A model generated the notes under the pieces. It ran no database searches and was not told the origin of the DNA. It saw nothing but the letters and a program-made list of their open reading frames with translations. From Candidatus Poribacteria bacterium (GTDB lineage Bacteria; Poribacteria; WGA-4E; WGA-3G), in contig JAJEAG010000033.1 of NCBI GenBank assembly GCA_022824265.1, positions 62,001 through 126,000 on the forward strand: DNA of 64,000 nucleotides. The letters are read 5' to 3'. Below, piece by piece: positions 29,614 through 30,378 of the stretch. Numbering within the stretch: the first letter of the stretch is position 1; every line of letters begins with the position of its first letter. The translations under genes and the position numbers were made by a program.

Positions 29614-30378
29614 ATGAAAAATCAACTATTATTAGTACTATTTGCTATAATTATTGTGGTTGTTTCTGTCAACAATTCAGCAGCAATAATTGACTCAGGT
29701 GCTGCAATTGGAATTTGGCTTCTTGACGAAGGAAATGGTAATACCGTAAAGGATTCATCTGGTAATGGCAATGATGGCAAAATAGTTGGAGCAAAATGGA
29801 CAGATGGTAAGTTTGGGAAGGCACTTGATTTTAATGGTTCAGCAAAGGTTGAAATCCCACCAAGTGAGTCAATTGATGATTTTCGTGAGGAGTTCACGTA
29901 TTTATTATGGGTGAAACCAACAGCGGCACCACCCAATGTCAACACACGCGTTATTGAACGTGATTGGCATAATCCAACTATCCAAATTGGACCAGCAGAT
30001 TTTTACGGAAGTATCGCTGTAAATGGTGACCAAGCTCAAACACATGTTCGTGGTGGTAGTTGGGAACAGGATGAATGGAGTTTTGTTGCAATAACTTACG
30101 ATGGAAATGTTCTCAAACTATTTGTTGACGGTGAATTTGTTGGAGAGAAGGCAGTAGGTGTCCCTGACAATAAACCAAACGGTGATATTAGGTTGGCATC
30201 ATGGAAAGATCCAGGTTGGACATATATTGGATTAATTGATGACGTAGGTATCTTCAATATACCTCTATCTGAAGATGATTTATTACAAGTTATGGATAAT
30301 GGACTTGAAGAGGCTTTAGAGGTTATTGCAGTGGGTAAATTAACAACAACTTGGGGACTAATCAAATTTGACAGGTAG
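29614..30378 (+). CDS. Secreted LamG/concanavalin A-like lectin domain protein with C-terminal KLTTTWG motif
   Basis: Signal peptide; AIGIWLLDEGNGNTVKDSSGNGNDGKIVGAKWTDGKFGKALDFNG; LKLFVDGEFVGEK; ends GKLTTTWGLIKFDR. Confidence 0.88.
   Translation: MKNQLLLVLFAIIIVVVSVNNSAAIIDSGAAIGIWLLDEGNGNTVKDSSGNGNDGKIVGAKWTDGKFGKALDFNGSAKVEIPPSESIDDFREEFTYLLWVKPTAAPPNVNTRVIERDWHNPTIQIGPADFYGSIAVNGDQAQTHVRGGSWEQDEWSFVAITYDGNVLKLFVDGEFVGEKAVGVPDNKPNGDIRLASWKDPGWTYIGLIDDVGIFNIPLSEDDLLQVMDNGLEEALEVIAVGKLTTTWGLIKFDR

What the first reader, a model, noticed from the sequence alone, without database searches (positions are those of the whole stretch)
30316..30378. Shared C-terminal KLTTTW[GA]x[IL]K tail on three different secreted proteins (copy 1)
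The proteins at 29614, 59530 and 53770(-) each have a signal peptide and end in GKLTTTWGLIKFDR, GKLTTTWGNIKNKIY and GSKLTTTWADLKLN. Two have LamG domains; the third has an unrelated-looking central domain. The codons differ (aaattaacaacaacttgg, aagttaaccacaacttgg, aaattaacaactacatgg), so the conservation appears to be at protein level. This looks like a lineage-specific C-terminal sorting or anchoring tag distinct from LPxTG, PEP-CTERM and T9SS domains.
Basis: partly seen in the sequence, partly recalled or inferred. Interest (0 to 1): 0.8.

Follow-up and report, generated by a model that had tools for sequence, protein, structure and literature searches.

The report
Phylum-wide C-terminal tail on secreted proteins
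Nearly a hundred unrelated small exported proteins in this sponge-associated bacterium (Candidatus Poribacteria) end in the same roughly 15-residue tail, found in every Poribacteria genome checked and in essentially no others, which looks like a new kind of C-terminal address label for protein export or surface attachment.

Summary
The tail is a 15-residue motif, V-[ED]-[PA]-x-[GD]-K-L-[TA]-T-T-W-[GA]-x-[LI]-K, followed by a few residues and the stop codon. At least 90 tail proteins are in hand from the window's genome. All 87 Poribacteria genomes held carry it, against 0 of 249 other genomes in a control phylum. Every motif found in an open frame is C-terminal (281 of 281). Tail proteins are small (median 270 aa), look Sec-exported (92% against 26% of other genes) and fall into about 20 unrelated families. 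All 60 small LamG proteins recovered from this genome carry it. In both predicted structures the tail is detached from the fold. So 'a lineage-specific C-terminal sorting or anchoring tag' is supported.

The same genomes encode type IX secretion (T9SS) parts: a SprA/Sov-like translocon, PorV-family shuttles, PorU-like sortase and canonical type A C-terminal domains (CTDs). The tail shows no sequence similarity to the CTD, never co-occurs with it, and in two families the same passenger domain carries one or the other. Best reading: a short helix-prone signal read in the envelope by a protein receptor, most plausibly a PorV-type shuttle of this T9SS. Receptor and route are inferred, not shown.

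The parts
29614..30378 (+). Secreted single-domain LamG protein, 254 aa, tail copy 1
   Evidence: ORF; PF13385 E=4.8e-20; hydrophobic N-terminal signal-peptide-like stretch
30322..30366 (+). Tail motif VIAVGKLTTTWGLIK (then FDR, stop)
   Evidence: Matches phylum consensus V-x-x-x-x-K-L-T-T-T-W-G-x-I-K
53770..54603 (-). Secreted protein with PA14/CBM35-like beta-sandwich core, 277 aa, tail copy 2
   Evidence: ORF; 120 listed homologues of about 277 aa, 119 match the tail pattern and 1 has an Arg variant; weak Foldseek matches to PA14 and CBM35 sugar-binding modules
53779..53823 (-). Tail motif VEIGSKLTTTWADLK (then LN, stop)
   Evidence: V261, K266, W271 and K275 invariant in 43 homologues; residues 261-277 pLDDT < 50, helix 269-276
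59506..60348 (+). Secreted single-domain LamG protein, 272 aa from Met at 59530 (280 aa from 59506), tail copy 3
   Evidence: ORF; PF13385 E=5e-25
60289..60333 (+). Tail motif VEAKGKLTTTWGNIK (then NKIY, stop)
   Evidence: Conserved in homologues while cores diverge; residues 251-272 pLDDT < 50, helix 265-271

Best explanation
The tail is a dedicated C-terminal sorting signal of Candidatus Poribacteria. Small proteins with mostly carbohydrate-binding or propeller-type domains are exported by Sec (inferred from signal-peptide-like N-termini). The free C-terminal 15 residues (VEPxGKLTTTWGxIK) are then bound in the envelope by a protein receptor. The Leu, Trp and Leu/Ile residues at i, i+4 and i+7 suggest a short amphipathic helix flanked by two near-invariant lysines. 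The most likely receptor is one of the 8-24 PorV-family shuttles working with the SprA/Sov-like translocon, so the tail would be a second, short T9SS signal beside the canonical type A CTD. Shown: sequence, position, phylum restriction, passenger diversity, export signals, detachment from the fold, presence of T9SS parts, mutual exclusion with the CTD. Inferred: helix on binding, receptor identity, route, final location. I put about 0.85 on 'C-terminal sorting or docking signal read by a protein receptor' and about 0.4 on the T9SS route.
For: Tail always C-terminal. Signal-peptide-like N-terminus in 291 of 318 tail proteins against 123 of 467 control genes, by a home-made rule. About 20 families without mutual BLAST similarity, including LamG, CBM4_9, LDL-receptor class B repeats, PD40 propeller, DUF4960, DUF3108-like and ankyrin. 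60 of 60 small LamG proteins recovered from the genome carry it; the two large ones recovered do not. Own-genome pairs: median core identity 21%, median tail identity 53%. Tail detached in AlphaFold2 models, with a low-confidence short helix. T9SS parts: SprA/Sov TIGR04189 E=5e-39 to 5e-51, found in 81 of 87 genomes through SprA_N; PorV family above cut-off in 87 of 87, 8-24 copies; C25 peptidase in 86 of 87, three tested matching PorU sortase at 1e-111 to 1e-137; type A CTD in 87 of 87. No protein has both endings (318 tail, 60 CTD), and two passenger families occur with either: LDL-receptor-type propeller E=1e-37, DUF3108-like E=2e-22. In F. johnsoniae different shuttles read different C-terminal signals (PMC12618676), and Prevotella uses 40-51 aa CTDs (PMC11969387).
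Against: HHalign finds no similarity between tail and CTD profiles (probability 0.1%), and 15 residues is far shorter than any CTD named in the papers read. Type A CTDs bind as folded beta-sandwiches (PMC10994853), which a 15-residue helix cannot imitate. Tail genes are not visibly linked to PorV-family genes: 4 of 248 tail loci, about the rate I estimate by chance. The GldM motor model matched nothing, though that search was uninformative. The SprA-like protein scores below its curated equivalog cut-off (133-173 against 200 bits) and found no PDB sequence match.
Confidence: 0.45

Rival explanations
1. The tail is a docking peptide independent of T9SS. After export it binds a scaffold or outer-membrane receptor, much as dockerins bind cohesins, and so displays many binding modules on one surface structure.
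For: Single-domain, mostly carbohydrate-binding passengers; short helix-prone motif with i, i+4, i+7 hydrophobic residues; no sequence similarity to CTD.
Against: No candidate scaffold was identified; no partner gene was found linked (only PorV-family linkage was tested); it does not explain why CTD and tail replace each other on homologous passengers.
Confidence: 0.3
2. The tail is a cleavage or transpeptidation signal for a PorU-type C25 sortase: the conserved VEP-x-G-K region is cut and the protein is joined to a surface glycolipid.
For: PorU-like C25 proteins in 86 of 87 genomes; P. intermedia CTDs are cleaved and glycosylated at the new C-terminus.
Against: No cleavage evidence; the most conserved residues (Lys, Trp, Lys) lie after any such site. 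The model overlaps the T9SS reading rather than excluding it.
Confidence: 0.1
3. The tail is an amphipathic membrane-binding helix that tethers small proteins to a membrane leaflet without a receptor.
For: Hydrophobic Leu, Trp and Ile on one predicted helix face, with Lys/Arg-rich ends.
Against: Only three hydrophobic residues; Thr-Thr before Trp, Gly/Ala after it, and Val ten residues before are far more specific than membrane affinity needs.
Confidence: 0.1
4. The tail is an inherited structural element of one fold family spread by gene duplication.
For: LamG-like proteins make up most cases.
Against: About 20 unrelated families carry it; it is detached from the fold; it stays similar at 21% core identity.
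Confidence: 0.03

Closest known systems
T9SS type A C-terminal domain (TIGR04183 / Por_Secre_tail)
   Same: C-terminal, on Sec-exported proteins of many families; same genomes; an important near-C-terminal Lys; replaces or is replaced by the tail on homologous passengers
   Different: CTD is a folded beta-sandwich of about 70-100 residues; the tail is 15 residues with no fold and no profile similarity; CTD proteins are larger (median 584 against 270 aa, partly truncated by locus edges)
Short T9SS CTDs of Prevotella intermedia (40-51 aa)
   Same: Shortened C-terminal signals for diverse cargo
   Different: They retain motifs B, D and E and a three-stranded sheet; the tail has none of these
PEP-CTERM, LPXTG and other C-terminal sorting tags
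   Same: Short conserved motif near the C-terminus on many unrelated exported proteins, lineage-restricted
   Different: No transmembrane segment after the motif; sortase and exosortase genes were not searched for
Dockerin / helical short linear motifs
   Same: C-terminal helical docking on modular carbohydrate-binding proteins
   Different: No calcium-binding repeat; 15 residues only

Membership tests
T9SS type A cargo signal (TIGR04183) | Similarity to the CTD profile | tested here: not met
   HHalign probability 0.1%; NCBIfam reports no CTD on the three proteins
T9SS type A cargo signal (TIGR04183) | C-terminal position on proteins with Sec signal peptide | tested here: met
   281 of 281 C-terminal; 92% signal-peptide-like
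T9SS cargo (any signal) | Genome encodes SprA/Sov, PorV and PorU | tested here: met
   the SprA-like protein is below its equivalog cut-off
T9SS cargo (any signal) | Motor (GldL/GldM) present | tested here: inconclusive
   GldM model rang in no genome including controls; GldL not searched
T9SS cargo (any signal) | Secretion depends on SprA and a PorV-type shuttle | not testable with these tools
   Needs genetics or reconstitution
PEP-CTERM / LPXTG-type tag | Motif followed by a transmembrane helix and basic tail | tested here: not met
   Motif is followed by only a few mostly polar residues before the stop codon
PEP-CTERM / LPXTG-type tag | Dedicated sortase or exosortase | not tested
   No family search spent on it
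Structural strand of one shared fold | Tail packed in the fold of all carriers | tested here: not met
   Detached, pLDDT < 50; about 20 unrelated families

The most novel reading that the evidence does not exclude
The tail is a previously undescribed class of C-terminal secretion signal: a 15-residue helical motif read by specialised PorV-family shuttles of a Poribacteria type IX system, working beside the folded CTD and reserved for small single-domain surface proteins.
Probability: 0.35. Interest if true: 0.88.

Novelty: new variant of a known kind. Interest (0 to 1): 0.75.

Why it matters
It would be a new address label defining a large part of the secretome of an abundant sponge-associated phylum, and would give a simple sequence rule for predicting its surface proteins. 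The SprA-like, PorV-family and PorU-like genes found here also bear on a question left open in 2014, when CTDs were seen in Poribacteria but the secretion system's structural genes were not (PMC3909097). Together they make a testable case that one translocon can read two very different C-terminal signals.

Tried and rejected
Shared-fold strand: rejected. Nucleotide repeat or recent duplication: rejected, codons vary freely and cores are about 21% identical. Truncated CTD: a G-K-L resemblance to CTD ends such as GKLAILR was noticed but HHalign gives no support. Linkage of tail genes to PorV-family genes: none beyond the rate I estimate by chance. Occurrence outside Poribacteria: two hits in genomes named Planctomycetota (L175) and Pseudomonadota (L154). 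L175's tail protein is about 70% identical to Poribacteria proteins and 249 other genomes of that phylum have none, so binning contamination is likely; L154 is less clear, its best matches being 28-45% identical. G009 first seemed to lack the tail; it has variants such as KMAAAWASLK. GldM absence is uninformative. The LamG model matched clostridial toxin binding domains in Foldseek; that is only the common jelly-roll fold at 14-19% identity and says nothing about toxicity. The literature held shows no prior mention of the tail sequence.

Full report
Observation. The three ORFs are present and end as described. Two match LamG (PF13385) and the third has no Pfam match. The window lies in a 4.45 Mb genome (G000, contig C98:62001-126000). 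Close relatives of its proteins are named Candidatus Poribacteria, as are 78 of the 80 listed loci of a tail-pattern scan over species-representative genomes.

Not chance. The DNA pattern for K-L-[TA]-T-T-W-[GA] occurs 38 times in G000 against 1 for the reversed control. Broader patterns give 58 against 2 and 74 against 3. Across all loci fetched, 210 of 210 strict motifs and 281 of 281 relaxed motifs lie at the C-terminus of an open frame, none internal. Aligned on the Trp, the consensus is V(269/281)-[ED]-[PA]-x-[GD]-K-L-[TA]-T-T-W-[GA]-x-[LI]-K, usually followed by two to five residues and the stop. Codons vary freely, so selection is on the protein.

Extent. 86 of 87 Poribacteria genomes match the strict pattern with 3-78 copies each, controls near zero. 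The exception, G009, and the low-count G026 carry variants of K-L-x-x-x-W-x-x-[LIM]-K: 15 and 65 copies by a relaxed pattern, against 1 each in controls. A 250-genome sample of the phylum of a genome named Planctomycetota gave matches only in that genome. Its tail contigs carry Poribacteria-like proteins (up to about 70% identity), which suggests binning contamination.

What carries it. At least 90 tail proteins of G000 are in hand. The 318 closed tail ORFs from all loci have a median length of 270 aa. By a simple signal-peptide rule of my own, 291 of 318 are positive against 123 of 467 other genes of similar size; most of the failures shown are cut by locus ends or have long upstream frames. 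An earlier set of 309 falls into 23 single-linkage BLAST groups, with Pfam matches to LamG, CBM4_9, LDL-receptor class B repeats, PD40 propellers, DUF4960, DUF3108-like and ankyrin repeats, and several with none. In G000, 60 of 60 recovered LamG proteins of 250-311 aa have the tail; the two larger ones recovered (646 and 698 aa) do not. The third window protein belongs to a family in which 119 of 120 listed homologues match the tail pattern and the last has Arg for Lys. Its core weakly resembles PA14 and CBM35 sugar-binding modules.

Not part of the fold. AlphaFold2 gives a mostly confident core for the third protein and pLDDT below 50 for residues 261-277, drawn as a short helix 269-276. The LamG model is poorer overall (mean 62.8) but behaves the same at the tail, with helix 265-271. 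Random own-genome pairs have a median core identity of 21% and tail identity of 53%.

Secretion machinery. Kamke et al. 2014 saw TIGR04183 CTDs in Poribacteria but reported that structural genes of the Por system were not found (PMC3909097). Here 81 of 87 genomes contain a SprA_N-matching frame, nearly always a single one and about 2150-2300 aa where complete. Four representatives match TIGR04189 (Sov/SprA) at 5e-39 to 5e-51, below the curated equivalog cut-off. PorV-family proteins score above cut-off in 87 of 87 genomes, 8-24 copies each. C25 peptidases occur in 86 of 87; three tested match the PorU sortase model at 1e-111 to 1e-137, one above cut-off, and end in a type A CTD. Type A CTDs occur in 87 of 87. 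No held paper found here describes these genes in Poribacteria. A GldM search was uninformative.

Link between tail and machinery. This is circumstantial. Tail and CTD are mutually exclusive (318 and 60 proteins, no overlap), and homologous passengers occur with either: an LDL-receptor-type propeller (E=1e-37) and a DUF3108-like domain (E=2e-22). In F. johnsoniae specialised shuttles read different signal classes (PMC12618676). Against it, the tail has no CTD similarity, type A CTDs bind as folded domains (PMC10994853), and tail genes are not linked to PorV-family genes. I therefore hold the sorting or docking signal at about 0.85 and the T9SS route at about 0.4.

Proposed mechanism. Sec export (inferred), then recognition of the flexible C-terminal peptide through an induced helix presenting Leu, Trp and Leu/Ile between two Lys (inferred from spacing and low-confidence models), by a phylum-specific receptor (inferred), leading to transport to or display on the cell surface (inferred from passenger types).

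Noticed in passing
G000:C14:34615-41082 (L071:1616-8083), with single counterparts in most Poribacteria genomes: SprA/Sov-like outer-membrane translocon of 2155 aa; with PorV-family and PorU-like genes it supplies T9SS structural genes reported missing in Poribacteria in 2014.
   Followed up: yes
G000:C98:13111-14238 (L106), about 48 kb upstream of the window: PorU-like C25 sortase of 2164 aa that itself ends in a canonical type A CTD.
   Followed up: partly
Whole phylum: PorV/PorQ-family proteins are expanded to 8-24 copies per genome, possibly specialised shuttles.
   Followed up: partly
G000:C14:48805-49821 (L071:15806-16822): A tail-bearing PD40 propeller protein lies about 8 kb downstream of the SprA-like gene.
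   Followed up: no
L154 (named Pseudomonadota RHO2_bin_21) and L175 (named Planctomycetota NIOZ-UU13): Public MAGs under other phylum names that carry tail genes, probably mis-binned Poribacteria contigs (clear for L175, less so for L154).
   Followed up: partly
window 28829-29587, 56525-59302: Tail genes of the window sit beside TIM-barrel sugar isomerase-like and Gfo/Idh/MocA-like genes (by eye), suggesting links to carbohydrate use.
   Followed up: no
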